Shown: positions 886 to 45,320 of the stretch, in pieces
Position numbering within the stretch: position 1 is the first letter of the stretch
How the letters are laid out: every line of letters starts with the position of its first letter
From: Pseudomonas laurylsulfativorans
Lineage (GTDB): Bacteria; Pseudomonadota; Gammaproteobacteria; Pseudomonadales; Pseudomonadaceae
Assembly (NCBI RefSeq): GCF_002906155.1
Contig: NZ_MUJK01000012.1
Location: 62,001-126,000, forward strand
DNA length: 64,000 nt
Direction: 5' to 3'
Program-made: the position numbers and the translations under genes
The notes under the pieces: generated by a model
What the model was told of the DNA's origin: nothing
The model's input: the letters and a program-made list of their open reading frames with translations, nothing else
Databases searched by the model: none

Positions 886-2078
886 GGGGCGTCTCCGATA
901 ATCAGGCTGACGTTATTGCCCCCGAAGGCGAAGGAGTTGCTCATCAGGTAGCGGGGTGCAATGGACGTCAGGCGAGTCGCCGGGGTCACCCATTGCAGCG
1001 GCGGCAGTTCGGGGTCGGGCTGCCCGTCCCAGACATGCGGTGGCAAGGCATGCTCGCGATTGTCAGTGCTCAGGCTCAACCAGCAGAACGCCGCTTCCAG
1101 TGCACCGGCTGCGCCAAGGGTGTGGCCGGTCATCGGTTTGCTCGAGGAACAGTGCACACCGGCCGGGAACAGCGTCGCCACGGCCTGGCTTTCCATGGCG
1201 TCGTTGTGTTGGGTAGCGGTGCCGTGGAGGTTCAGATAAGCGATCTGCTCCGGTTGCAGGTTGGCGCGGCCCAAGGCTTTGCGCATGGCTTGCAGGGCGC
1301 CACGACCCGCCGGCTCCGGGGCGGAAATGTGATGCGCATCGGAGCTGGCGCCGCTGCCGAGCAAGGCAATCGGTTGGCTATCACCTGCACTTTTGGTCAT
1401 CAGGAACAGTACCGCCGCTTCGCCAATATTGATGCCGTTACGGTTCACCGAAAACGGATTGCAACGCTGCTCCGAAACCGCTTCCAGCGCCGTAAAACCA
1501 TTGAGGGTCAGCTTGCACAGGGTATCGACACCGCCACACAGCACCGCGTCGCAAATGCCCAGGTCCAACAGGCGCTGGGCGCTCATCAGGGCTCGGGCAC
1601 TGGAGGTGCAAGCCGTGGAGATGACATAGGCCGGCCCGCTCAATTGCAGCCAGTCGGCGAGGAAATTTGCCGGCGCACCGAGTTCCTGTTGCTGGTAGTC
1701 GTACTCGGCAGGGAACTGCTTTTCGCGCAGGTAATGCGCCAGGCCCTGGCTGGCCTCGTCGATACCCGAGGTGCTGGTGCCCAGCACGACACCGATGCGG
1801 TCGCGGCCGAAGGTCTGGATCGCGCTGTCGATGTCCGCGCGGATTTGCAGCGTGGCTTCCAGCAACAACTGATTGTTGCGACTGTGATGGCGCGACATGT
1901 CGGCTGGAAGGGTTGCCAGTTTGCCCTGGACCGCGCCGACCGGCAGCGTGCGTTGTGGCACCCACCCGGTCTGTTCACGCATGCCGCCGCAGTCGCCGGC
2001 AAACAGCTTGCGGGCCACTTCCTGCTTGTCGCGGCCCAATGCGCAGACCAATCCGAGGGCATTGAGGTAAGCCGTCAT
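882..2078 (-). CDS. Beta-ketoacyl-ACP synthase (KAS II-like), aryl-polyene elongation
   Basis: This is a 398-residue thiolase-fold condensing enzyme. The catalytic triad is readable: Cys157 in STACTSSA, His285 in NLHGTATQ and His319 in KPMTGHTLGAAG. It should catalyse decarboxylative condensation of malonyl-ACP with the growing polyenoyl-ACP. It overlaps the lipoprotein gene upstream and the dehydratase downstream by 4 bases each. Together with the Cys-less partner at 16084–16809 it could form a KS/chain-length-factor type heterodimer, as proposed for aryl-polyene systems, but another ketosynthase may lie left of the window. Family assignment is firm; partner assignment is inference. Confidence 0.92.
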   Translation of the reverse strand: MTAYLNALGLVCALGRDKQEVARKLFAGDCGGMREQTGWVPQRTLPVGAVQGKLATLPADMSRHHSRNNQLLLEATLQIRADIDSAIQTFGRDRIGVVLGTSTSGIDEASQGLAHYLREKQFPAEYDYQQQELGAPANFLADWLQLSGPAYVISTACTSSARALMSAQRLLDLGICDAVLCGGVDTLCKLTLNGFTALEAVSEQRCNPFSVNRNGINIGEAAVLFLMTKSAGDSQPIALLGSGASSDAHHISAPEPAGRGALQAMRKALGRANLQPEQIAYLNLHGTATQHNDAMESQAVATLFPAGVHCSSSKPMTGHTLGAAGALEAAFCWLSLSTDNREHALPPHVWDGQPDPELPPLQWVTPATRLTSIAPRYLMSNSFAFGGNNVSLIIGDAP

Positions 2079-35437: not shown

Positions 35438-35587
35438 CAGGACAAAATCCGGCTGCTCCGGCTGATGGCTTTCCTGGGGAAACATCAGTCATAAATGCGC
35501 GGGAATCCGAATCGTCTGTCAAACGTATGCGTTTGCGAGCGGTTCACCAGCCGCCGCTACATAAAAACAAAGCCAGGGCGTAACTTA

Positions 35588-37072
35588 ATGAGCGTAAGCA
35601 ATCCAACCCTGATCACGTTCGTGATCTACATCGCAGCAATGGTGCTGATCGGCTTGATGGCCTATCGCTCCACCAACAACCTTTCCGACTACATTCTGGG
35701 TGGCCGTAGCCTGGGCAGCGTAGTGACTGCACTGTCCGCCGGTGCTTCCGACATGAGTGGCTGGTTGCTGATGGGCTTGCCTGGCGCGATCTACATGTCC
35801 GGTCTTTCCGAAAGCTGGATCGCCATCGGCCTGATCGTCGGTGCCTACCTGAACTGGCTGTTCGTCGCCGGCCGTCTGCGTGTGCAGACCGAGCACAACG
35901 GTGATGCACTGACCCTGCCGGACTACTTCGCCAGCCGTTTCGAAGACAAAAGCGGTCTGCTGCGGATCATCTCTGCGGTCGTGATCCTGGTGTTCTTCAC
36001 CATTTACTGCGCTTCCGGCATCGTGGCCGGTGCCCGTTTGTTCGAAAGCACCTTCGGCATGTCCTACGAGACCGCGCTGTGGGCTGGCGCTGCGGCGACG
36101 ATTGCTTACACCTTCATCGGTGGATTCCTGGCCGTGAGCTGGACCGATACCGTACAAGCCACCTTGATGATTTTCGCGTTGATCCTGACGCCGATCATCG
36201 TGCTGCTGGCTACCGGCGGTGTAGACACCACGTTCCTGGCCATCGAAGCGCAAGATCCAAGCAACTTCGACATGCTCAAGGGCACCACTTTCATCGGCAT
36301 CATCTCGCTGATGGGCTGGGGTCTGGGCTACTTCGGCCAGCCGCACATCCTGGCGCGTTTCATGGCTGCCGATTCGGTTAAATCGATCGCCAAGGCCCGT
36401 CGCATCTCCATGGCCTGGATGGTCCTGTGCCTGGGCGGCACCGTAGCCGTCGGCTTCTTCGGTATCGCCTACTTCTCGGCGCACCCGGACGTGGCTGGCG
36501 CAGTCTCCGAGAACCACGAACGTGTGTTCATCGAGCTGGCAAAGATCCTGTTCAACCCATGGATCGCGGGTATCCTGCTGTCGGCCATTCTGGCTGCGGT
36601 GATGAGCACCCTGAGCTGCCAGTTGCTGGTGTGCTCGAGCGCGCTGACCGAAGACTTCTACAAAACCTTCCTGCGTAAATCCGCTTCGCAGCTGGAACTG
36701 GTCTGGGTCGGTCGTGCCATGGTGCTGCTGGTTGCCCTGGTTGCCATCGCTCTGGCGGCCAACCCGGAAAACCGCGTACTGGGTCTGGTGAGCTACGCCT
36801 GGGCCGGTTTCGGTGCCGCATTCGGTCCGGTCGTGCTGATCTCCGTGATCTGGAAAGACATGACCCGCAACGGCGCACTGGCCGGTATCCTGGTCGGCGC
36901 GATCACCGTGATCGTCTGGAAACACTTCGAACTGCTGGGCCTGTACGAAATCATCCCAGGCTTCATCTTCGCCAGCCTGGCGATCTACATCGTCAGCAAA
37001 ATGGGCACGCCGACTGCTGGTATGTTCCAGCGCTTTGCGGCTGCTGAGGCTGATTACCGTTTGAACAAGTAA
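35588..37072 (+). CDS. putP: Sodium/proline symporter PutP
   Basis: The 494-residue protein belongs to the SSS family, with about 13 membrane helices. Sodium/proline-binding blocks are visible, such as LSAGASDMSGWLLMGLPGA (helix 2) and FGQPHILARFMAA. It imports proline with Na+ for PutA. ATG 35588 follows the GTAACTTA region without a strong Shine–Dalgarno. It is followed at once by an intrinsic terminator. Its last ~290 bases occur again, decayed, at 41014–41286. Confidence 0.95.
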   Translation: MSVSNPTLITFVIYIAAMVLIGLMAYRSTNNLSDYILGGRSLGSVVTALSAGASDMSGWLLMGLPGAIYMSGLSESWIAIGLIVGAYLNWLFVAGRLRVQTEHNGDALTLPDYFASRFEDKSGLLRIISAVVILVFFTIYCASGIVAGARLFESTFGMSYETALWAGAAATIAYTFIGGFLAVSWTDTVQATLMIFALILTPIIVLLATGGVDTTFLAIEAQDPSNFDMLKGTTFIGIISLMGWGLGYFGQPHILARFMAADSVKSIAKARRISMAWMVLCLGGTVAVGFFGIAYFSAHPDVAGAVSENHERVFIELAKILFNPWIAGILLSAILAAVMSTLSCQLLVCSSALTEDFYKTFLRKSASQLELVWVGRAMVLLVALVAIALAANPENRVLGLVSYAWAGFGAAFGPVVLISVIWKDMTRNGALAGILVGAITVIVWKHFELLGLYEIIPGFIFASLAIYIVSKMGTPTAGMFQRFAAAEADYRLNK

Positions 37073-37074
37073 TC

Positions 37075-37668
37075 GTTTGAGGTCATCCATCGCGGATGAA
37101 AGAACGGCTCGCAGCCTTTGGGTGCGAGCCGTTTTTTTTGCGTTCACTTTGGTTCGTATTTCCTCTTCGTAACCCTTTTCTACAGGGCTTGTAGGAGGTT
37201 TCCTGATTTGCCCAGATGCCTTGAATTACCTCTCTGCTCACGTACTTTGCGCTAGCCCGACTCATTTCCGAACCGGGATAACTTATCGTTAACAACGGCG
37301 CATTTCCCCAAGGGATGGGGCGCCAGTTGAAAGGGATATCAAGACATGGCTATCGGGCATTACATTGGGCTAGGTGACAAAACTGACTGCGGCGGCACCG
37401 TTCTGGAGGGGGACCACACCTTCAATTTCGGTCTCATCCATGCTCGTGAGGGTGATCTGGTCAGTTGCGGAAAAGACAAGAAGAGCTACCGGATCATCGG
37501 CGGCGTCTCGCACGTCCTGAGCGAGGGGCGACGAGTGGCTGGCACGCTGGATAGTTTCAGTGGTTGCCCTTGTCGAGCCAAACTACTCCCTTCGAATTTC
37601 GAGGGGAGTTATGTCAATGAACCCCCTGCACCGAAAGCAGCCAGGGCAACCGCTCAATCGGCCTCGCC
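37075..37668. repeat. 594-bp direct repeat, copy 1
   Basis: By eye identical to 41289–41882. It spans the putP terminator, the toxin promoter/leader and the first ~107 codons (PAAR domain) of the toxin gene. Identity ends abruptly in the Ser/Pro/Thr-rich linker. Confidence 0.92.
37103..37139 (+). terminator. Intrinsic terminator of putP
   Basis: The 11-bp stem AACGGCTCGCA / TGCGAGCCGTT is followed by a run of eight Ts. An identical copy lies at 41317–41353. Confidence 0.93.
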
Positions 37669-38767
37669 TGCGCCTTCGATGACAGCCACCAGCAATTCGA
37701 CCGTGCAGCGTCCATCCGGCTTTACGTCAGTGCCAAGTGCGTCATCTCGATCACAGCCCACCGGTCTCGACGTTCCGGAACCCGGCTTTTATATCGTGCC
37801 CAAAAGCACAACCCGCGAACAACTCGAAGCCTCGCTGTTCACCCTGCGCGACCCGGCGGTGATGGGTAAATTCAAACTTCTCAATCCCAATCTGCGCGAC
37901 GTCAAAGCCGGCTCGATGATCGTGCTGAGCGATCCCAATAATTTCCAGTGCACTCGTGAAGAAGCGCTGCTCATGGATGTGGCGGCCAAGACCAATCAGG
38001 TGCTTGAAACGCTTAGCCCGGAAGAAGCGGATTTCATGGTGCAGCACCGCGATGCCATTCAGACGATCTTGGGCTCCGGTTCGGGCGCCATAGGTGTCGG
38101 CGCGAGCATTTTCAAGAATAATCTGGATAACGTCGGCCATGCCTTGAGGGAAATTGAAGTCTTGCAACAGACGACCCTTCAAAGGGATGGGCATCTGCGC
38201 TCGTCGGCCTTTTTTGTAGAGCGACAGCGTTTGCTTGCAATACTTAACCGTCAAATGACGACGCTGACCCGTAAGGGTATTGGTTTTCCTCACCACATCA
38301 ACTTGAAAAAAATGCTGGGCATATCCAGTCAAAGCTTGGTTCACCACTGGACCCATGCCAGTCCCGGAGGGCAAATACCTGGTCATGCCACTCATCTTGA
38401 AGGAGTAGCGAGGGCTTCAAAATACGTCCAGTACGGCGGTTGGTTAGGGACTGCCGTCGGCGGAGGAGCTTCTGCTGCGAAGGTTCAGGATGTGTGTGCT
38501 GCTGGAAATAGCGAAGCGTGTAGACGAATCCGGCTTACTGAGTCAGGGAGTTTCACGGTAGGAGTGGCTGCTGGCATGGCCACAGGCAGGATATTAACTG
38601 CGCCGGTAGTCGGAGGCCTGTGCCTTGCTCTGGGAGTTCCAACAGGCGGCTTTTTAACGCTTGCTTGCAGTATCGTTGCGGTGGGCGCTGGCTCGTATGC
38701 GGGGGGTACGTTGGGAGAAATGAGCGGCGAGTTCATAGGCGAAGCGATTTACGAGTCGACGAAATGA
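37346..38767 (+). CDS. PAAR-domain polymorphic toxin A, probable type VI secreted membrane effector
   Basis: The 473-residue protein has an N-terminal PAAR-like tip domain (1–about 85: GLGDKTDCGGTVLEGDHTF, then HAREGDLVSCG). A Ser/Pro/Thr-rich linker (about 92–135) and a LysM-like segment (about 138–190: GFYIVPKSTTREQLEAS, then LNPNLRDVKAGSMIV) follow. A helical middle region leads to a C-terminal Gly-rich hydrophobic zone (about 350–465) with glycine-zipper stretches such as GGWLGTAVGGGAS and VGAGSYAGGTLGE. That architecture fits a T6SS spike effector that inserts into target membranes. The stop overlaps a three-helix membrane protein gene (ATGA), the expected immunity partner. No other T6SS gene is in the window, so it would be an orphan effector locus. 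Pore formation is inferred. Confidence 0.8.
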   Translation: MAIGHYIGLGDKTDCGGTVLEGDHTFNFGLIHAREGDLVSCGKDKKSYRIIGGVSHVLSEGRRVAGTLDSFSGCPCRAKLLPSNFEGSYVNEPPAPKAARATAQSASPAPSMTATSNSTVQRPSGFTSVPSASSRSQPTGLDVPEPGFYIVPKSTTREQLEASLFTLRDPAVMGKFKLLNPNLRDVKAGSMIVLSDPNNFQCTREEALLMDVAAKTNQVLETLSPEEADFMVQHRDAIQTILGSGSGAIGVGASIFKNNLDNVGHALREIEVLQQTTLQRDGHLRSSAFFVERQRLLAILNRQMTTLTRKGIGFPHHINLKKMLGISSQSLVHHWTHASPGGQIPGHATHLEGVARASKYVQYGGWLGTAVGGGASAAKVQDVCAAGNSEACRRIRLTESGSFTVGVAAGMATGRILTAPVVGGLCLALGVPTGGFLTLACSIVAVGAGSYAGGTLGEMSGEFIGEAIYESTK

Positions 38768-39147
38768 CTACTGCAGAAATGATTGCTGGCGGTTTGTGTG
38801 GCTTGGCGTTCGTATTCGTACTTGTCGGCAACTGTTTCGCATTGCACTTGGGCTATACGAAAAGAGAATTCTTATTGGTGCATTTCAAGAATAGCTCCCC
38901 AAGCATATCTAATGCCGTACGCATACATGATGGTTATTGGGGTAGGCTTCAGCTCGTGGGAAGCGCTTGTATGGTTCTTGCTTTTCCAGGTTTTTTCATT
39001 AAACACGGCATTTTAAGTGTTCAGGACTTTGCAGGTTTTCCTCGTCCACTAAGATACAAGTTAGTTGTGCTGCAATGGAGTGTTATCGTGTCATTCACTG
39101 CTATGGTCTTACTGGTCGCGTTATGGAAGTCAGGAGCGCTCAAATAG
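38764..39147 (+). CDS. Membrane immunity protein A1 for toxin A (predicted)
   Basis: The 127-residue protein has three predicted membrane helices (about 7–29, 63–83 and 101–122). Blocks LGYTKREFLLVHFKNSSP, FPGFFIKHGILSVQDF and KLVVLQW are shared with the three paralogues in this array. Its ATG overlaps the toxin stop by 4 bases, as usual for effector–immunity pairs. It is more AT-rich than the flanking core genes. Function is predicted from position, topology and family expansion beside the toxins. Confidence 0.78.
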   Translation: MTTAEMIAGGLCGLAFVFVLVGNCFALHLGYTKREFLLVHFKNSSPSISNAVRIHDGYWGRLQLVGSACMVLAFPGFFIKHGILSVQDFAGFPRPLRYKLVVLQWSVIVSFTAMVLLVALWKSGALK

Positions 39148-39266
39148 CTGGCAAAGACGCGATGACGCTGCGGTTAATTGCAGTGTATGCCACTCGTTTA
39201 AGAAAGTATGGGTGAAAATAATTTTTGGTGAAAATAAATCAGTCCTCATTTTTTCACTTTCAGCAA

Positions 39267-39325
39267 GGTACCGGAGGGAAGGTTGGTGAAGGTGCAACCG
39301 AAAAAAATATGAGTCTCTTAATTGA
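39267..39325 (+). pseudogene. Fossil C-terminal tail of a lost toxin, before immunity paralogue A2
   Basis: Reading from 39267 gives GTGGKVGEGATEK. After a shift in the A7 run at 39301–39307 the reading continues KYESLN-stop, with the TGA at 39323–39325. This parallels the toxin A ending GTLGEMSGEFIGEAIYESTK. The stop overlaps the TTG that aligns with the ATG of paralogue A3, repeating the ATGA-style overlap of intact pairs. Short similarity, so confidence is moderate. Confidence 0.55.
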
Positions 39326-39708
39326 CCCTGAGCACAGCTGACACATTATTCCTTGTCATAGGAGTTATTGACATTTCAGGGTTGTTCGCGGGAATTGGCT
39401 ACATGCTTTTTCTAGCAAACACAAAAATGGATATTCTTCAGCGGTGTTTTAAAAACAGCTGGGGCGTTACGGAGGGAAATGCCTTTGAGTATAGCGGGGT
39501 GTGGGGAAGAATAATGATAATTGGTCGTATATCAGGTTATGTGACCTTCTCTACCTTTTACATTAAGCGCGGACTTCTCAGTCCTGACGATTTAAAAGAG
39601 CTACCTGTTCAGCTCAAACAAAAACTAATCGCCTTGCAGTAGGTTGGGATAACTTTGTTAGTTGTTATGCTAGGTCTCGCGTTGCTAGCTGAACTGAATG
39701 TTGTCTGA
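39322..39708 (+). pseudogene. Immunity paralogue A2, interrupted by a nonsense codon
   Basis: Reading from TTG 39322 gives a protein aligned end to end with A3 and A1. A TAG at 39640–39642 replaces the Trp conserved in A1 (LQWS), A3 (LQWT) and B (WRWG). After the stop the frame continues with the third membrane helix (ITLLVVMLGLALL) to TGA 39706–39708. The start codon is TTG where A3 has ATG. Both changes suggest decay; a 106-residue truncated product lacking the last helix remains possible. Confidence 0.75.
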
Positions 39709-39823
39709 TTTGGAGGGGCGTTCATTCGAAAATAAAGATAAATATAATGGGAGTGGGTTTGTTACTGGAATAAAAATAAATCAGTCCCCTTTTTGTTTTT
39801 TTAGTCTTTTCTTGCTGCGCTAT

Positions 39824-39877
39824 TGGGGCGCTATGGGTGAGAAAGTGGGCGAGCGGATTTTAGAGGTCACTCAATGA
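39824..39877 (+). pseudogene. Fossil C-terminal tail of a lost toxin, before immunity paralogue A3
   Basis: In the frame ending at TGA 39875–39877 the sequence reads WGAMGEKVGERILEVTQ-stop. This resembles the toxin A tail GTLGEMSGEFIGEAIYESTK and the toxin B tail GAVGSGLGESFGDIIYEMRR. The stop overlaps ATG 39874 of the following immunity paralogue exactly as in the intact pairs. Upstream the frame soon leaves recognisable toxin sequence. Confidence 0.65.
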
Positions 39878-40262
39878 GCGTTAGCATTGTAGATACGCTA
39901 TTCCTGGCATCAGGGCTAATAGTTTTCGGTGGGGTACTTGTTGTATTTGGGGTTGCGCTGCATTTGGGCTACACCAAGGGAGATGTCCTGTCAGAGCATT
40001 TCCAAAACAGTTCTCCACTTATAACTGTCTCTGCGCGTATTGACGCAGGGCTTAGAGGTAAGACTCGGCTGGTTTATTCAATATCTAGCGTCGTTACGTT
40101 TCCCCGATTTTTTTGAAGCGCGGTATGGTCACTGCTGAAGATCTCGACAATTTTCCCCATGACCTCAGGCGAAAACTCGTAGTGCTGCAATGGACTCTTC
40201 TAGGGGTTGTATCTGGCATGGTGCTACTTGGCCTGATAGCGATGTCTGGGATAATCAGGTAA
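39874..40262 (+). pseudogene. Immunity paralogue A3, frameshifted in a T7 run
   Basis: ATG 39874 opens a frame (MSVSIVDTLFLASGL) that stops at TGA 40114–40116, immediately after seven Ts at 40108–40114. With one more T the frame runs on as FPRFFLKRGMVTAEDL to KLVVLQWTLLGVVSGMVLL and a TAA at 40260–40262. That gives about 129 residues aligned with A1 throughout. This is either a decayed gene, a phase-variable tract or a sequencing error. Confidence 0.8.
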
Positions 40263-40270
40263 CTGACCAA

Positions 40271-40310
40271 TAAAAAATGGGCACTCAATCTAATTGGTGT
40301 GCCCATTCTT
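40271..40310. terminator. Hairpin at the 3' end of the first immunity array
   Basis: ATGGGCAC (40277–40284) pairs with GTGCCCAT (40299–40306) across a 14-base loop. The U-tract is weak on the plus strand (TTCTT), while the minus strand ends in six Ts. It is a plausible but not strong terminator. Confidence 0.5.
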
Positions 40311-40357
40311 CATGCCACTCCCTACTCGTCAGGCGGGTTGGAAATTTTCTGGACAAG

Positions 40358-40679
40358 GTCCTAGGACGTTTCCTTCAAAACGTATCGGTTTCCATGAACT
40401 GGTGGAGCCTGGGGTTCATGGATAGTCTTTGGCGGTCATTGACAAATCAGTGGCGGGGTGTAGGAACCTCTCAAGACCGTTAGAGCTACATTGGCGTCAC
40501 TGCCTGGTTTGCGGCCGTTTTCATGCGGCCGTAAGATCAGTTGCGGCGGCTATGCGCGGGCACGCTTCGGCGTGGTCGAGTTTTGCTCTAGGTCTCGATA
40601 TTCCTACCCCGTGCATAGCTGCCACCCTAGCCCGTAGGAAGGCTAATGGCAGGTCCATTTCCTCCTTAGAGCGTTAAAA
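40358..40679 (+). promoter_or_regulatory. Conserved leader, copy A, upstream of a small ORF
   Basis: This stretch is similar to 43539–43854. It begins with the palindrome GTCCTAGGAC followed by GTTTCCTTCAAAACG, and contains shared blocks such as GATATTCCTACCCCG near its 3' end. Similarity includes indels that change the reading frame, so conservation looks nucleic-acid based. It probably acts as promoter plus 5' leader. Confidence 0.5.
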
Positions 40680-41003
40680 ATGAAATCCATACATCTCGAC
40701 CCACCCTACGAAAAACCAACTTCCCATCCCGACAACCGCTTCATGGCATTGACCAGCAACTGCACCGACATGCCCACCCTGTTCGTCGACACCCACGCGC
40801 CACTCGACATCCTCACCGGCGCTGCCAACTACAGAATCCGCGCAGTGACCCAAGTGCTTGAGAACCTGTCCATGCGCGGTTCGATCGAGTGCGAGTCGTT
40901 CATCCTCAGTGACTTTGCCTTGCTCTGCGCCATTTCGTTGCGCGATGGCTGTGATGTGCTGGATGTGGTCGGGCGGCAGTTGCGAGCGCAGACTTCGGTG
41001 TAG
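40680..41003 (+). CDS. Small conserved Pseudomonas protein of unknown function, copy A
   Basis: The 107-residue soluble protein has no signal peptide or membrane helix. It contains FMALTSNCTDMPTLFVDT, then a helical region (APLDILTGAANYRIRAVTQV) and an acidic end. It is closely similar over its full length to the product at 43855–44178. It may belong to the short Pseudomonas-restricted families of the DUF6124/DUF3077 type, but I cannot place it firmly. It lies at the end of each toxin module and was duplicated with it. Confidence 0.65.
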   Translation: MKSIHLDPPYEKPTSHPDNRFMALTSNCTDMPTLFVDTHAPLDILTGAANYRIRAVTQVLENLSMRGSIECESFILSDFALLCAISLRDGCDVLDVVGRQLRAQTSV

Positions 41004-41013
41004 CGGCACGCGT

Positions 41014-41286
41014 CTGGTGAACTGCGCCTGGGCCGGTTTCGGTGCCGCATTCGGTCCGGTCGTGCTGATCTCCATGATCTGGAAAGACATGACCCGCAAC
41101 AGCGCTGGCCGGAGCCATCACCGTGTTTGTCTGGAAACACTTCGAACTGCTGGGCCTGTACGAAATCATCCCGGGCTTCATCTTTGCCAGCCTGGCGATC
41201 TACTTCGTCAGCAAAATGGGCACGCCGACTGCTGGTATGTCCAGCGTTTTGCGGCTGCAGAGAGTGATTACCGCCTGAACAAGTAA
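41014..41286 (+). pseudogene. putP 3' fragment carried by the tandem duplication
   Basis: Similarity to putP starts abruptly at about 41014 (matching 36782) and ends at the shared stop. The copy is about 18 bases shorter than the parent, with a larger deletion in the NGALAGIL region and a single-base loss at TATGTCCAG. The frame is broken and then restored near the end (DYRLNK). It marks the duplication junction right after the copy-A small ORF. Confidence 0.9.
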
Positions 41287-41288
41287 TT

Positions 41289-41882
41289 GTTTGAGGTCAT
41301 CCATCGCGGATGAAAGAACGGCTCGCAGCCTTTGGGTGCGAGCCGTTTTTTTTGCGTTCACTTTGGTTCGTATTTCCTCTTCGTAACCCTTTTCTACAGG
41401 GCTTGTAGGAGGTTTCCTGATTTGCCCAGATGCCTTGAATTACCTCTCTGCTCACGTACTTTGCGCTAGCCCGACTCATTTCCGAACCGGGATAACTTAT
41501 CGTTAACAACGGCGCATTTCCCCAAGGGATGGGGCGCCAGTTGAAAGGGATATCAAGACATGGCTATCGGGCATTACATTGGGCTAGGTGACAAAACTGA
41601 CTGCGGCGGCACCGTTCTGGAGGGGGACCACACCTTCAATTTCGGTCTCATCCATGCTCGTGAGGGTGATCTGGTCAGTTGCGGAAAAGACAAGAAGAGC
41701 TACCGGATCATCGGCGGCGTCTCGCACGTCCTGAGCGAGGGGCGACGAGTGGCTGGCACGCTGGATAGTTTCAGTGGTTGCCCTTGTCGAGCCAAACTAC
41801 TCCCTTCGAATTTCGAGGGGAGTTATGTCAATGAACCCCCTGCACCGAAAGCAGCCAGGGCAACCGCTCAATCGGCCTCGCC
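41289..41882. repeat. 594-bp direct repeat, copy 2
   Basis: By eye identical to 37075–37668 (offset 4214). It includes the terminator, the promoter region and the PAAR-coding start of toxin B. Confidence 0.92.
41317..41353 (+). terminator. Duplicated putP terminator
   Basis: The same 11-bp stem and T8 as at 37103–37139 now lie behind the putP fragment. They should isolate toxin B from upstream transcription. Confidence 0.9.
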
Positions 41883-42981
41883 CGCGCCATCACCGATAAC
41901 CACCAGCCATTCGACTACGCCGCGTCCATCCAGCTTTACGTCAGCGCCAGACACCTCGTCTCCATCACGGTTCACCAGCCTCGACGCTCCGGAGCCGGGT
42001 TTCTACATCGTGCCCAAAAGCACAAGCCGCGAACAACTCGAGGCCTCGTTGTTCACCCTGCGCGATCCAGCGGTGATGGGCAAATTCAAACTGCTCAATC
42101 CCAATCTGCGCGACGTAAAAGCCGGCTCGATGATCGTGCTGAGCGATCCCAATAATTTCCAGTGCACTCGTGAAGAAGCCCTGCTCATGGACGTGGCGGC
42201 CAAGACCAATCGGGTACTTGAAACGCTCAGCCCGGAAGAGGCGGATTTCATGGTGCAGCATCGTGATGCCATCCAGACCTTCCTGGGCCATGGCTCGACC
42301 GCAATCGGCGTTGGCGCGAGTATTCTCAAAAACAATCTGGATAACGTCAGCGAAACCCTGAAAAAAATCGAAGCGTTGCATCAGCATTCATTTCTGCGCG
42401 ATGGCCACCTGAGCTCACCGACGTTTCTGGCTGAGCGCCAAAAGCTGCTCGCTCAACTCGATAGCCACATGACAAGCCTGACGCGCAAAGGTATCGGTTT
42501 CCCCGACCACCCCAATTTGAATCGTGCAATGTTCCTCTCTCCTCCCAGTCTGGTTCACCGCTGGACGGAAGCCGGCGGAGTGGGGCAGATGCCGGGGTAT
42601 GCGACTCATCTTGAAGGTGTGGCTAGGGCATCCAAATACCTGAAGTACGGTGGATGGGTTGGCACTGCCATTGGTGGCGGGGCGTCGGCCATGAAAGTTC
42701 AGGAAGTGTGCACGGCCGGCAATGCCGAGGCCTGTAAACGAGTTAAGTTTACTGAGGTGGGGAGCTTCGCCGGCGGTATTGCAGGAGGTGCTGTAATAGG
42801 TGGAATCTTAACCGCTAAGACCGTTGGTGGGATTTGTCTCGCGGTTAGCGTGCCTACAGCCGGCATCGGAATCTTGGTATGCGGCGTGGTAGTGGTGACG
42901 GCAGGATCGTTAGTAGGTGGTGCAGTGGGTAGCGGGCTTGGTGAGTCATTTGGAGATATTATTTACGAGATGCGTAGATGA
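41560..42981 (+). CDS. PAAR-domain polymorphic toxin B, probable type VI secreted membrane effector
   Basis: The 473-residue protein is the same length as toxin A. The first ~110 residues, including the PAAR domain, are identical to A. The linker differs, the LysM-like and early middle part is close to A, and divergence increases toward the C-terminus. There the Gly-rich region (GGWVGTAIGGGAS, GGIAGGAVIGGILTAK, GSLVGGAVGSGLGES) keeps its character but not its sequence. The gradient fits selection for new toxin specificity on a shared delivery domain. The stop overlaps its own immunity gene by 4 bases. Confidence 0.8.
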   Translation: MAIGHYIGLGDKTDCGGTVLEGDHTFNFGLIHAREGDLVSCGKDKKSYRIIGGVSHVLSEGRRVAGTLDSFSGCPCRAKLLPSNFEGSYVNEPPAPKAARATAQSASPAPSPITTSHSTTPRPSSFTSAPDTSSPSRFTSLDAPEPGFYIVPKSTSREQLEASLFTLRDPAVMGKFKLLNPNLRDVKAGSMIVLSDPNNFQCTREEALLMDVAAKTNRVLETLSPEEADFMVQHRDAIQTFLGHGSTAIGVGASILKNNLDNVSETLKKIEALHQHSFLRDGHLSSPTFLAERQKLLAQLDSHMTSLTRKGIGFPDHPNLNRAMFLSPPSLVHRWTEAGGVGQMPGYATHLEGVARASKYLKYGGWVGTAIGGGASAMKVQEVCTAGNAEACKRVKFTEVGSFAGGIAGGAVIGGILTAKTVGGICLAVSVPTAGIGILVCGVVVVTAGSLVGGAVGSGLGESFGDIIYEMRR

Positions 42982-43361
42982 GCCAGGCAAAATTGGCTTT
43001 CGGCCTTTTAGGAGGTGCTGTTCTCCTGATGATATTCATTTGGATAGGATTCGCACTTTACTTGGCCTACACAAAAATTGACGTAATGCTTAGCCATCTG
43101 AAAAACAGTACTGCAGTCACGGCTTTATCCCATTACCGGCAGCTTGGGGCGTGGGGACACTTTCACTTGATTGCAGGAATATCTGCACTCGTTGCGTTTC
43201 CCAAACGGCATATTAAAGATGGCAGTCTCAGTGTTGAGGATATAAACAGCCTTCCTGCTCCAATCAAACGCAAGCTTGTCATTTGGCGCTGGGGAATATT
43301 AATTCTTGGTGGACTGTTTTTGTTGTTCGGTGGCATTGGCGAAATTGCGGACTGGATATAG
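42978..43361 (+). CDS. Membrane immunity protein B for toxin B (predicted)
   Basis: The 127-residue, three-helix membrane protein is a paralogue of A1. It keeps LAYTK, HLKNS, FPKRHIKDGSLSVEDI and the KLVIWRW block, but is otherwise strongly diverged. Divergence matched to that of the toxin C-terminus suggests cognate specificity. The ATG overlaps the toxin B stop. The 177 bases that follow (43362–43538) hold no further paralogue or toxin fossil. Confidence 0.78.
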   Translation: MSQAKLAFGLLGGAVLLMIFIWIGFALYLAYTKIDVMLSHLKNSTAVTALSHYRQLGAWGHFHLIAGISALVAFPKRHIKDGSLSVEDINSLPAPIKRKLVIWRWGILILGGLFLLFGGIGEIADWI

Positions 43362-43538
43362 CGACCATTAGTGGCTGACGCCTAGTCAGCCAATACGCTC
43401 CTGAGTCATTCCCAGTTGTTCAAGTCTTGCCTGGTTCACTGCTTGAGAGACGCTGGTGCTGTAAGGCAGGTTGCAGAGGGCGCTGCGGTGTAGTGGAAGC
43501 CTGTGGTGGGTTGAGGTTGCTGCGAATTTCTGGGTAAG

Positions 43539-43854
43539 GTCCTAGGACGTTTCCTTCAAAACGTGGCGGTTTTCATGAGCTGGTGCGACCTGAGTTCCAT
43601 CGATAGTCTTTGGCGGTCACTGACAGTTCAGTGGTGGGGTGTAGGAACCCGTTAAGACCATGAAAAACGCTTTGGCGTCGACACCTGATTTGCGGCCACT
43701 AACGTGCGCCCGTAAGATCTGTTGCGGCGGCTGTGCGCGGGCATGCTTCGGCGTGGTCGAGTTCTCTGGTCTCGATATTCCTACCCCGCGTATGGCTGCC
43801 ACCCAAGCCTGTAGGAAGGCCGATGTTAGTCCCACTTCTACCAGAAGTTAAAAA
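43539..43854 (+). promoter_or_regulatory. Conserved leader, copy B, upstream of a small ORF
   Basis: Related to 40358–40679, with the same opening palindrome GTCCTAGGAC and the same 3' blocks. A chance reading frame in this stretch (43660–43851) is not matched in frame in copy A because of a 4-base indel. Confidence 0.5.
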
Positions 43855-44178
43855 ATGAAAACAATTCATCCCGATCCACCCAACGAAAAATCAACTTCCT
43901 TCCCCGACAACCGCTTCATGGCATTGACCAGCAACTGCACCGATATGCCCACCCTGTTCGTCGACACCCAGGCGCCACTCGACATCCTCACCGATACTGC
44001 CAACTACAGAATCCGCGCCGTTACCCAAGTGCTTGAGAACCTGTCCATGCGCAGTTCGATCGAGTGCGAGTCCTTCATCCTCAGTGACTTTGCCTTGCTC
44101 TGCGCCATTTCGTTGCGCGATGGCTGTGATGTGCTGGATGTGGTCGGGCGGCGGTTGCGGGCGCGGCCTTCGCAGTAG
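43855..44178 (+). CDS. Small conserved Pseudomonas protein of unknown function, copy B
   Basis: A 107-residue paralogue of the product at 40680–41003. Differences are few and scattered (for example LDILTDTANYRIRAV against LDILTGAANYRIRAV), so the coding frame is under constraint in both copies. Its function is unknown. Confidence 0.65.
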   Translation: MKTIHPDPPNEKSTSFPDNRFMALTSNCTDMPTLFVDTQAPLDILTDTANYRIRAVTQVLENLSMRSSIECESFILSDFALLCAISLRDGCDVLDVVGRRLRARPSQ

Positions 44179-44197: not shown

Positions 44198-44290
44198 CTG
44201 TAGGAGCCGGCTTGCTGGCGATAGCGGTGTGTCAGACGTTTTCCATGTTAATTGATACACCGCCATCGCCAGCAAGCCGGCTCCTACAGG
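44198..44290. repeat. REP doublet, GCCGGC variant
   Basis: Arms CTGTAGGAGCCGGCTTGCTG and CAGCAAGCCGGCTCCTACAG are inverted, with a spacer of about 50 bases. This variant differs from the GAGCGAGC type seen left of 27 kb. Confidence 0.9.
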
Positions 44291-44389: not shown

Positions 44390-45226
44390 ATGAATTATCG
44401 TCACGCCTTCCATGCCGGCAATCACGCCGATGTGTTCAAACACCTGACCTTGACCCGCCTCATCGCCCTGATGTCGCGCAAGGAGCAGCCGTTTGCCTAT
44501 CTCGACACCCACGCCGGCATCGGTTTGTATGACCTTCAGGGTGACCAGGCCAACCGTACCGGTGAGTACCTGGAAGGCATTGCGCGTTTGTGGGATCAGC
44601 CGGATCTGCCGATCCTGACCGCCGATTACATGCAAGTCCTGCACGAAATGAACCCGGATGGCCAGTTGCGCTATTACCCGGGTTCGCCGGAGCTGGCGCG
44701 GCGTCTGACCCGTCCACAGGACCGTGTATTGCTCAACGAGAAGCATCCGGAAGACGGCGTGCTGCTCAAGGACAACATGGCCGGTGATCGCCGGGTCAAG
44801 GTGCATCTGGGCGAGGGTTGGTTTGTTCCGCGGGCCTTGTTGCCGGTGCCGGAGAAGCGGGCGGTGATGTTGATCGATCCGCCGTTCGAGAAGCTCGACG
44901 AGATGCAGCGTTGTGCCGCGTCGTTGAAGGAGGCGATTGGCCGGATGCGCCAGACCGTGGCGGCTATCTGGTACCCGGTGAAGGATCAGCGCGCCTTGCG
45001 TCGTTTCTACCAGGACCTGGCCGGTACGGGTGCGCCGAAGTTGTTGCGCGTGGAGTTGCTGGTGCATCCGCTGGATACGCCGAACAGCCTGAACGGTTCC
45101 GGGTTGGCGATTGCTAATCCGCCGTGGGGGCTGGAGGAAGAGTTGCGTGAGTTGCTGCCGTGGCTGTCCGAGAAGCTGGGGCAGACACAGGGTGGGTGGC
45201 GGATGGATTGGTTGATTGCCGAGTAA
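44390..45226 (+). CDS. rlmJ: 23S rRNA (adenine-2030-N6)-methyltransferase RlmJ
   Basis: The 278-residue protein begins MNYRHAFHAGNHADVFKHLT, the RlmJ family signature. It has the SAM-binding YLDTHAGIGLY and the catalytic IDPPFE motif of N6-adenine methyltransferases. It methylates A2030 of 23S rRNA. GGAG lies 7 bases before the ATG. Confidence 0.95.
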   Translation: MNYRHAFHAGNHADVFKHLTLTRLIALMSRKEQPFAYLDTHAGIGLYDLQGDQANRTGEYLEGIARLWDQPDLPILTADYMQVLHEMNPDGQLRYYPGSPELARRLTRPQDRVLLNEKHPEDGVLLKDNMAGDRRVKVHLGEGWFVPRALLPVPEKRAVMLIDPPFEKLDEMQRCAASLKEAIGRMRQTVAAIWYPVKDQRALRRFYQDLAGTGAPKLLRVELLVHPLDTPNSLNGSGLAIANPPWGLEEELRELLPWLSEKLGQTQGGWRMDWLIAE

Positions 45227-45234
45227 TGCTCGGC

Positions 45235-45320
45235 CTGTAGGAGCCGGCTTGCCGGCGATGGCGGCCTAAAGGTCACCACTGGACCCACTGCCGCCATCGC
45301 TGGCAAGCCGGCTCCTACAA
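45235..45320. repeat. REP doublet, GCCGGC variant, between convergent rlmJ and msrA
   Basis: Arms CTGTAGGAGCCGGCTTGCCG and CTGGCAAGCCGGCTCCTACA are inverted around about 45 bases. No separate terminator is visible, so the element may end both transcripts. Confidence 0.9.

What the first reader, a model, noticed from the sequence alone, without database searches (positions are those of the whole stretch)
37076..44178. Tandem array of PAAR-tipped membrane toxins with multiplied immunity genes downstream of putP
Two complete 473-residue PAAR proteins with Gly-rich hydrophobic C-termini each overlap, by ATGA, a three-helix membrane protein gene, and two more immunity paralogues lie between them. 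The N-terminal delivery part is identical while the toxin end and immunity diverge together. This looks like an orphan T6SS effector locus generating new pore-type specificities in place. I do not recognise this toxin family from the literature.
Basis: partly seen in the sequence, partly recalled or inferred. Interest (0 to 1): 0.85.

Follow-up and report, generated by a model that had tools for sequence, protein, structure and literature searches.

The report
Stacked T6SS membrane-toxin and immunity cassettes
Behind a proline-uptake gene, this Pseudomonas carries two spear-tip toxins with their protective proteins and the wrecks of two older protectors, showing how bacteria appear to swap contact weapons between species while keeping, or slowly losing, protection against weapons they gave up.

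Summary
In detail: two 473-aa PAAR proteins (37346-38767, 41560-42981), each overlapping by ATGA a 127-aa membrane-protein gene, with two more immunity relatives between them. Corrections: both middle paralogues are broken (in-frame stop; shifted frame), both follow what looks like a leftover toxin 3' end, and the second unit starts with a copied putP 3' end.
Most likely these are polymorphic T6SS effectors with cognate immunity proteins. The C-terminal part belongs to a family met in 39 of 95 related genomes and in Enterobacterales, on PAAR, on VgrG or alone, with four conserved cysteines and usually a small membrane protein next door. No Pfam or NCBIfam model covers it. It is probably not Ssp4: the published Ssp4 cysteines do not fit. 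A membrane pore is the best guess, undemonstrated.
The array does not look like specificities invented in place. The first toxin's last 133 residues and its immunity are 98-99% and 95% identical to those of another species whose PAAR is only 57% identical; a third species has the orphan type as its cognate immunity and keeps the first type as its orphan. Flanks match two haplotypes. putP-rlmJ looks like a T6SS-cargo hotspot (49 of 61 loci examined, not a random sample). Vibrio cholerae immunity arrays are the precedent.

The parts
35495..37072 (+). putP, sodium/proline symporter: left border of the site
   Evidence: NCBIfam TIGR02121, 736.1 bits, cut-off 515.5
37099..37137 (+). terminator-like palindrome with T run behind putP; the same at 41313-41351
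   Evidence: listed as a self-complementary repeat; read by eye as a terminator; the pattern scan places an overlapping site but finds no more such sites than shuffles give
37075..37668 (+). 594-bp tract identical to 41289-41882 (intergenic DNA plus about 108 codons)
37346..38767 (+). toxin T1, 473 aa: PAAR (residues 9-69), linker, body, hydrophobic Gly-rich end (341-473)
38764..39147 (+). immunity I1, 127 aa membrane protein, ATGA overlap with T1
39257..39330 (+). leftover toxin 3' end before pseudogene x
   Evidence: 82% to the 3' end of the L196 toxin gene; 39145-39330 is 92% to L239
39322..39705 (+). immunity pseudogene x: in-frame stop after 106 codons
   Evidence: 93% over 106 aa to the cognate immunity of L196, 91% over 128 aa read through
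39827..39877 (+). 16-residue toxin-like end closing in ATGA before pseudogene y
   Evidence: read by eye from the translation; no aligned match
39874..40262 (+). immunity pseudogene y: homology split over two frames
   Evidence: (39874-40113 and 40110-40259)
40346..40679 (+). DNA before 107-aa copy A, L196-like haplotype
   Evidence: 92% to L196; 81% to the window's other copy
40680..41003 (+). 107-aa gene, copy A
   Evidence: 92.3% to copy B
41012..41286 (+). putP 3' fragment that opens the second unit
   Evidence: 93.1% to putP outside 15 gap columns
41289..41882 (+). second copy of the identical tract
41560..42981 (+). toxin T2, 473 aa, same architecture as T1
42978..43361 (+). immunity I2, 127 aa membrane protein, ATGA overlap with T2
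   Evidence: model mean pLDDT 91.8
43527..43854 (+). DNA before 107-aa copy B, L197-like haplotype
   Evidence: 94% to L197, 82% to L196
43855..44178 (+). 107-aa gene, copy B
44390..45226 (+). rlmJ-type gene: right border of the site (name recalled)
   Evidence: conserved behind putP in many relatives; no NCBIfam match at E<=1e-20

Best explanation
The locus is an orphan T6SS cargo array in the putP-rlmJ gap. Each intact unit encodes a PAAR protein that caps a VgrG spike, followed by a C-terminal part that acts on the inner membrane of the struck cell, probably as a disulfide-stabilised pore, and a membrane immunity protein that protects sister cells. New specificities arrive from other strains or species: the 3' part of a toxin gene plus its immunity gene recombines in through the conserved gene body, and the old toxin's 3' end and immunity gene are pushed downstream. 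In this strain two such units, matching two haplotypes, stand in tandem; their PAAR ends have been made identical, most simply by gene conversion, and the older orphan immunity genes have decayed. Shown by sequence: PAAR, family, pairing, exchange of ends (for T1), remnants, decay, two flanking haplotypes, frequent T6SS cargo at this site. Inferred: secretion, toxicity, pore, protection, order of events.
For: PAAR and a T6SS cluster in the genome. Toxin domain on PAAR, VgrG or alone, usually next to a small membrane-protein gene (34 distinct pairs). Four invariant Cys in 22 of 22 aligned Pseudomonas rows and in 16 of 16 proteins from three groups. T1 against the L239 toxin: PAAR 57%, linker 30%, residues 341-473 98-99%; I1 against its immunity 95%. 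Pseudogene x is of the type that is cognate in L196, and L196 keeps an I1-type orphan (87%) behind a T1-type toxin remnant. Remnant before pseudogene x. DNA before 107-aa copy A is 92% like L196, before copy B 94% like L197, and 81% alike to each other. Immunity distance follows the toxin end best: r 0.75 for 406-473 against 0.55 for 144-205. GxxxG count in 341-473: 10 and 11, reached by 21 and 24 of 2000 shuffles. T6SS cargo at the site in 49 of 61 loci.
Against: No experiment. The toxin model failed (mean pLDDT 50.2) and has no PDB match at E<=0.001, so no fold supports the pore. Immunity distance correlates with every toxin region (0 of 2000 permutations reach any of the five values), so shared ancestry explains part of r 0.75. 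T2's end has no close relative among the loci compared (best 53% over 406-473), so transfer is shown for T1 only. The remnant before pseudogene y was read by eye. L247 is 86% identical before 107-aa copy A, so the haplotype split is not perfectly clean. The genome is a draft in 30 contigs, so an exact 594-bp repeat could be partly an assembly effect.
Confidence: 0.72

Rival explanations
1. Simple tandem duplication of one resident unit, followed by divergence of the toxin ends and immunity genes in place.
For: The unit is repeated from the putP end to the 107-aa gene, the second putP end is a fragment, and a 594-bp tract is identical.
Against: T1's end and I1 are nearly identical to those of another species while its PAAR is not; the DNA before the two 107-aa genes matches two different haplotypes better than each other; identity rises and falls along the unit instead of being even.
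Confidence: 0.15
2. The C-terminal part is not a pore former but a membrane-acting enzyme or another periplasmic toxin; the immunity protein is in the membrane because it binds the toxin there.
For: No fold could be assigned; hydropathy gives only one or two segments above 1.6 in the toxins; the family has a long helical, non-hydrophobic stretch between residues 206 and 340.
Against: No known enzyme family in Pfam or NCBIfam; Gly-rich hydrophobic end with GxxxG enrichment and co-variation with a membrane immunity protein.
Confidence: 0.25
3. The proteins are structural PAAR variants with inert tails, and the small membrane proteins are unrelated to immunity.
For: No toxicity data; Pfam finds only PAAR.
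Against: The same C-terminal part occurs without PAAR and on VgrG, next to a small membrane-protein gene in most cases; its end varies with that protein; leftover ends stand before orphan copies.
Confidence: 0.05
4. The tandem, or the 594-bp identity, is partly an artefact of draft assembly.
For: 30 contigs; exact repeat.
Against: The two copies differ on both sides and within one contig; each has its own immunity gene and flank.
Confidence: 0.07

Closest known systems
Vibrio cholerae T6SS effector displacement and immunity gene arrays (PMC5361080; listing and passages seen)
   Same: Incoming effector-immunity modules replace the effector, keep the old immunity gene downstream, and can shift back a 3' end of the old effector; orphans resemble cognate immunity genes of other strains.
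   Different: There the arrays sit 3' of T6SS clusters; here in an orphan PAAR locus between putP and rlmJ, with a second full unit, identical PAAR ends and broken orphans.
Ssp4/Sip4 family of pore-forming effectors (PMC12669606, two sections and passages; PMC5792426, passages; PMC4924876, passages)
   Same: About 330 aa in the stand-alone form, downstream membrane immunity gene, relatives in Pseudomonas, marine bacteria and Enterobacterales; Ssp4 acts in the periplasm and needs its cysteines and target-cell DsbA.
   Different: Ssp4 has three Cys (47, 123, 165); this family has four conserved Cys in the last third. Ssp4's ilv neighbours were found in none of the loci tested. The Ssp4 sequence itself was not compared.
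CDI ionophore toxins and their CdiI proteins (PMC11630599, passages)
   Same: Polymorphic C-terminal membrane toxins with highly variable immunity proteins.
   Different: Delivered by CdiA; modelled as five-helix bundles; no sequence link tested here.
VgrG5a-Tfe8/Tfi8 module of Pseudomonas ogarae F113 (PMC10671463, abstract and passages)
   Same: Orphan T6SS cargo module in Pseudomonas with a membrane toxin and an immunity protein with three predicted membrane helices.
   Different: Tfe8 resembles MATE transporters (10-12 helices), lies at the speA locus and has no PAAR.
Tse4 of P. aeruginosa (PMC12169545 and PMC11630599, passages)
   Same: T6SS effector that depolarises the target membrane, with a membrane-associated immunity protein.
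   Different: Tse4 is Hcp-borne without PAAR, and a predicted model resembles a beta-barrel; no sequence comparison made here.

Membership tests
PAAR-tipped (specialised) T6SS effector | N-terminal PAAR domain | tested here: met
   PF05488 37.3 and 38.7 bits, cut-off 27
PAAR-tipped (specialised) T6SS effector | C-terminal domain with adjacent immunity-like gene | tested here: met
   ATGA-coupled 127-aa membrane protein in both units; 33 of 37 fetched loci gave a full pair by my size and hydrophobicity filter, one of them a duplicate
PAAR-tipped (specialised) T6SS effector | T6SS core genes in the genome | tested here: met
   TssB, TssC, TssK, TssH, TssM, VgrG and PAAR on contig C11; TssA, E, F, G, J and L were not individually located
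PAAR-tipped (specialised) T6SS effector | T6SS-dependent secretion and toxicity | not testable with these tools
   needs experiments
Ssp4 family | three cysteines at 47, 123 and 165, all needed for activity | tested here: not met
   16 of 16 listed proteins of this family have four C-terminal Cys instead, e.g. 247, 255, 288, 304 in the 334-aa L137 protein; Ssp4 positions from PMC5792426
Ssp4 family | sequence similarity to Ssp4 itself | not testable with these tools
   the Ssp4 sequence was not identified in any record fetched; ilv neighbours not found
displacement-type immunity array | orphan immunity genes resemble cognate immunity genes of other strains | tested here: met
   pseudogene x is 93% to the cognate immunity in L196; the I1 type is an orphan in L196
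displacement-type immunity array | leftover effector 3' ends before orphans | tested here: met
   before pseudogene x in the window, before the second and third immunity genes of L196 and the second of L239; before pseudogene y by eye only
displacement-type immunity array | orphan immunity genes retained intact | tested here: not met
   both orphans in the window are broken; those of L196, L198 and L239 are intact ORFs; protection not tested
pore-forming toxin | ion conductance or depolarisation | not testable with these tools
   only GxxxG enrichment and hydropathy
LysM domain (residues 144-205) | match to a LysM profile | tested here: not met
   no Pfam LysM match at E<=1; a strand-helix-helix-strand order appears in a weak model, pLDDT about 70, so resemblance only

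The most novel reading that the evidence does not exclude
An undescribed, cross-order family of four-cysteine polymorphic membrane toxins whose last 70-130 residues carry the specificity and travel with a small membrane immunity protein onto PAAR, VgrG or stand-alone carriers; in Pseudomonas the putP-rlmJ gap is an exchange site where species carry each other's immunity as orphans, so that who can kill whom can be predicted from the array.
Probability: 0.5. Interest if true: 0.65.

Novelty: new variant of a known kind. Interest (0 to 1): 0.52.

Why it matters
It gives a readable record of weapon turnover at one chromosomal site: intact pair, leftover toxin end, decaying immunity, and the matching intact pairs in other species. 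The reciprocal orphans (I1 type and x type) make a direct prediction of cross-protection that can be tested with a few cloned genes. The toxin family spans Pseudomonas, Enterobacterales and other Gammaproteobacteria and matched no model in Pfam or NCBIfam in the proteins tested, so annotation by those libraries would miss its C-terminal part.

Tried and rejected
Ssp4 membership: pursued at length because size, neighbours and taxon range fitted; dropped when the published cysteine positions did not. My notebook entry still says it matches; the entry withdraws that.

Finding Ssp4's ilv insertion: none of the loci searched with E. coli ilv proteins had ilv neighbours (43 loci, where one IlvY-like hit of 24% identity was taken for another regulator; 5; 67, where most stretches are short, with about 1.5 kb on each side).

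Class-wide search with an LptA protein to find Serratia-like genomes at E<=1e-60 gave nothing: the cut-off was my choice and probably too strict; it was repeated within one family at 1e-40.

The immunity model is good but has no PDB match at E<=0.001.

Plasmid and phage collections: 3 plasmid records with a marine-type query, 20 with T2, of which H4-H6 (two Pantoea, one Klebsiella aerogenes) reach beyond the PAAR part, and one short unannotated 'Bacteriophage sp.' record from faeces, which I take for bacterial DNA.

Literature for a T6SS site at putP: putP with PAAR, type VI secretion and Pseudomonas gave 0 papers; vgrG with putP and Pseudomonas gave 5, none on this by listing; the listings showed none either.

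Sub-threshold family matches not used: DUF5056 E 0.0076 and DUF6450 E 0.11 on I2, an MCE model E 0.09 on T1. The first distance test held one duplicate (L013 and L232 are the same toxin); the numbers given are from the repeat without it, slightly lower.
Full report
What is there. The window belongs to a 6.69-Mb draft genome in 30 contigs, window at C3:62001-126000. The genus, Pseudomonas, is my reading of gene content; the genomes searched are unnamed. Between putP (TIGR02121) and an rlmJ-type gene (name recalled) lie two copies of one unit: end of putP, intergenic DNA with a terminator-like palindrome, PAAR-toxin gene, membrane-protein gene, and a 107-aa gene. The toxins are 473 aa with Pfam PAAR at residues 9-69. 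Stop and start overlap as ATGA in both units.

The two units compared. From 37075 to 37668 the first unit equals the second without a mismatch, 594 bp, starting 2 nt after the putP stop and ending in codon 108. Before the tract the putP ends are 93.1% identical outside 15 gap columns. Behind it identity is 74.5% (linker), 93.0% (residues 144-205), 84.2% (206-260), 62.5% (261-340), 62.9% (to the stop), 51.0% (immunity genes), 80.8% (DNA before the 107-aa genes) and 92.3% (107-aa genes). The tract is more alike than either side, which I read as recent gene conversion or recombination between the copies; an effect of draft assembly is not excluded.

The middle genes. Two more immunity relatives lie at 39322 and 39874. 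The first stops in frame after 106 codons, while its homology to the intact 128-aa immunity protein of locus L196 goes on to the end (91% over 128 positions). The second matches in one frame to 40113 and in another from 40110. Before the first, 39145-39330 is 92% identical to the same stretch in L239, and its last 74 nt are 82% identical to the true 3' end of the L196 toxin gene. Before the second there is a 16-residue toxin-like end closing in ATGA, read by eye.

Family. Among 95 genomes (the window's own and relatives), 39 have a match to T2; some of these matches are to the PAAR part only. The C-terminal part (about residues 145-473) occurs behind PAAR, behind a PAAR-like end, behind VgrG (a 1016-aa protein in L235, TIGR03361 616 bits), and alone in proteins of about 320-345 aa. 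Outside the genus: a class-wide sample gave 7 of 369 genomes including the window's own, two of them at E 4.4e-4 and 6.4e-4 and probably chance; 47 of 295 genomes of the family of Serratia rubidaea; 12 of 30 genomes of a genus that I take for Serratia because its members' LptA is 84-88% identical to that of S. rubidaea; and 21 loci, mostly named Erwinia and Pantoea, from a Pantoea query. Two Enterobacterales copies lie beside a gene that I take for T6SS FHA/TagH (L123, L125; label recalled, not searched). The proteins tested have no Pfam or NCBIfam match above cut-off in the C-terminal part or in the immunity proteins. Four cysteines (384, 392, 426, 441) are present in 22 of 22 aligned Pseudomonas rows; the same four recur in all 16 proteins, with spacings of 8, about 33 and about 15, except L038 (8, 25, 16).

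Not Ssp4. Ssp4 of Serratia marcescens is a pore former of similar size with a downstream membrane immunity protein and relatives in Pseudomonas, marine bacteria and Enterobacterales (PMC12669606, two sections and passages), and I first took this family for it. But Ssp4 has only three cysteines, at 47, 123 and 165, all required (PMC5792426, passages); the 16 members listed have four in the last third instead. The Ssp4 sequence itself was not available, so a remote relation stays open. What carries over is an analogy: Ssp4 needs DsbA of the target cell, and the conserved cysteines here suggest the same.

Delivery. The genome has one VipB/TssC match, five PAAR matches of which two are the subject, and ten VgrG-model matches, several partial or below cut-off. 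The contig C11 cluster has TssB, TssK, TssH and VgrG, TssM, TssC and PAAR. The other core genes were not individually located. So a machine is very likely present, and the putP locus is an orphan cargo site.

Exchange between species. Five PAAR-toxin loci stand at putP among those examined: the window, L196, L197, L198 and L239. T1 and the L239 toxin are 57% identical in PAAR, 30% in the linker, 85-92% in the body up to residue 340 and 98-99% in residues 341-473; their immunity proteins are 95% identical. L239 also has an intact x-type immunity gene in second place. In L196 the order is reversed: its cognate immunity is of the x type (93% to the window's pseudogene x over 106 aa), and it keeps an I1-type gene (87%) in second place behind a frame-broken remnant of a T1-type toxin end (pieces 74% and 90% identical), then a third immunity gene behind another remnant. 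This is the pattern proposed for Vibrio cholerae (PMC5361080, passages). For T2 no such close partner was found: its end is at best 53% identical over 406-473, and I2 is 52% identical to the cognate immunity of L197.

Two haplotypes in one genome. The 340 bp before 107-aa copy A are 92% identical to L196, 86% to L247 and 80-83% to L197, L200, L201 and L223; the 334 bp before copy B are 94% identical to L197, 93% to L200 and L201, 91% to L223 and 82% to L196. Window copies A and B are 80.8% identical. So the tandem looks like two pre-existing alleles stacked, not one unit copied and left to drift. Which one was resident is not settled. The 107-aa genes themselves do not discriminate (91-94% to L196, L197 and L201).

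The site. A DNA search with the end of putP matched 296 of 298 genus genomes. I fetched 60 downstream stretches: most are the best-ranked matches, some skipped; the rest are further down the list, several of them genomes known to carry a family member somewhere, and three (G048, G011, G006) taken because one was known near putP. With the window that makes 61: 5 PAAR plus toxin, 6 VgrG plus toxin, 37 VgrG without this toxin, 1 toxin alone, 12 with none of these. In 7 of the 37 the right border was not reached in the stretch held. One of the 12 (L218) has an Rhs-repeat ORF instead. The sample is not random, so 49 of 61 describes it and is not a rate. Of the 39 genomes, five (G000, G006, G011, G048, G053) have a family member close behind putP by the coordinates.

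Co-variation and membrane character. Of 37 fetched loci, 33 gave a toxin-immunity pair by my filter (4 dropped: two without an immunity ORF in the size range, two partial). With T1 and T2 and without one duplicate, 34 pairs remain: immunity distance correlates with toxin distance r 0.55 for residues 144-205, 0.63, 0.64, 0.74, and 0.75 for 406-473. No permutation of 2000 reaches any of these, so shared ancestry contributes; given residues 261-340 the partial r for the end is 0.64, and given the end the partial r for 144-205 is 0.33. GxxxG motifs in 341-473 number 10 and 11 against shuffle means of 5.2 and 6.0 (21 and 24 of 2000 shuffles reach them). The immunity model is confident (pLDDT 91.8); the toxin model is not (50.2); neither has a PDB match at E<=0.001.

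Judgement. Effector and immunity identity is very likely; membrane targeting likely; a pore the best guess; accretion by exchange well supported for unit 1 and probable for the tandem. The array principle is known. The toxin family, the reciprocal orphans and the putP-rlmJ site I did not find described in ten searches of open-licence papers, read mostly as listings.

Noticed in passing
window 40680-41003 and 43855-44178: A 107-aa gene of unknown family (no Pfam or NCBIfam match) borders the array and is also found between putP and rlmJ where no toxin is present (L199-L201, L203, L216).
   Followed up: partly
window 44198-44290 and 45234-45264: REP-like palindromic repeats between the 107-aa gene and the rlmJ-type gene, and again behind it (label recalled).
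   Followed up: no
L218:876-2963 (+): In one genome an Rhs-repeat ORF, whose first residues resemble a VgrG start, sits behind putP, as if a VgrG gene had been joined to an Rhs 3' part.
   Followed up: no
L234, L236: Members of the toxin family without PAAR or VgrG lie behind putP in the opposite orientation, so the site takes cargo in both directions.
   Followed up: no
L042:1438-2430 (-) with 1064-1447 (-): A weak hit (E 4.4e-4) is a 330-aa protein with a hydrophobic end followed by a 127-aa membrane protein, beside a restriction-modification-like ORF (label recalled); possibly another toxin-immunity pair outside this family.
   Followed up: no
G000:C4:28139-28537 (L047): A third PAAR protein of the genome matches the N-terminal part at 70% but has an unrelated C-terminal part.
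   Followed up: no
L264:3596-5629 (-): The T6SS cluster on contig C11 carries a class 3 lipase near VgrG, a likely further effector.
   Followed up: no
Enterobacterales loci L052-L066: Among close homologues (about 70-80% identical to the Pantoea query) the last residues of the toxin and the adjacent immunity protein differ most, as in Pseudomonas.
   Followed up: partly
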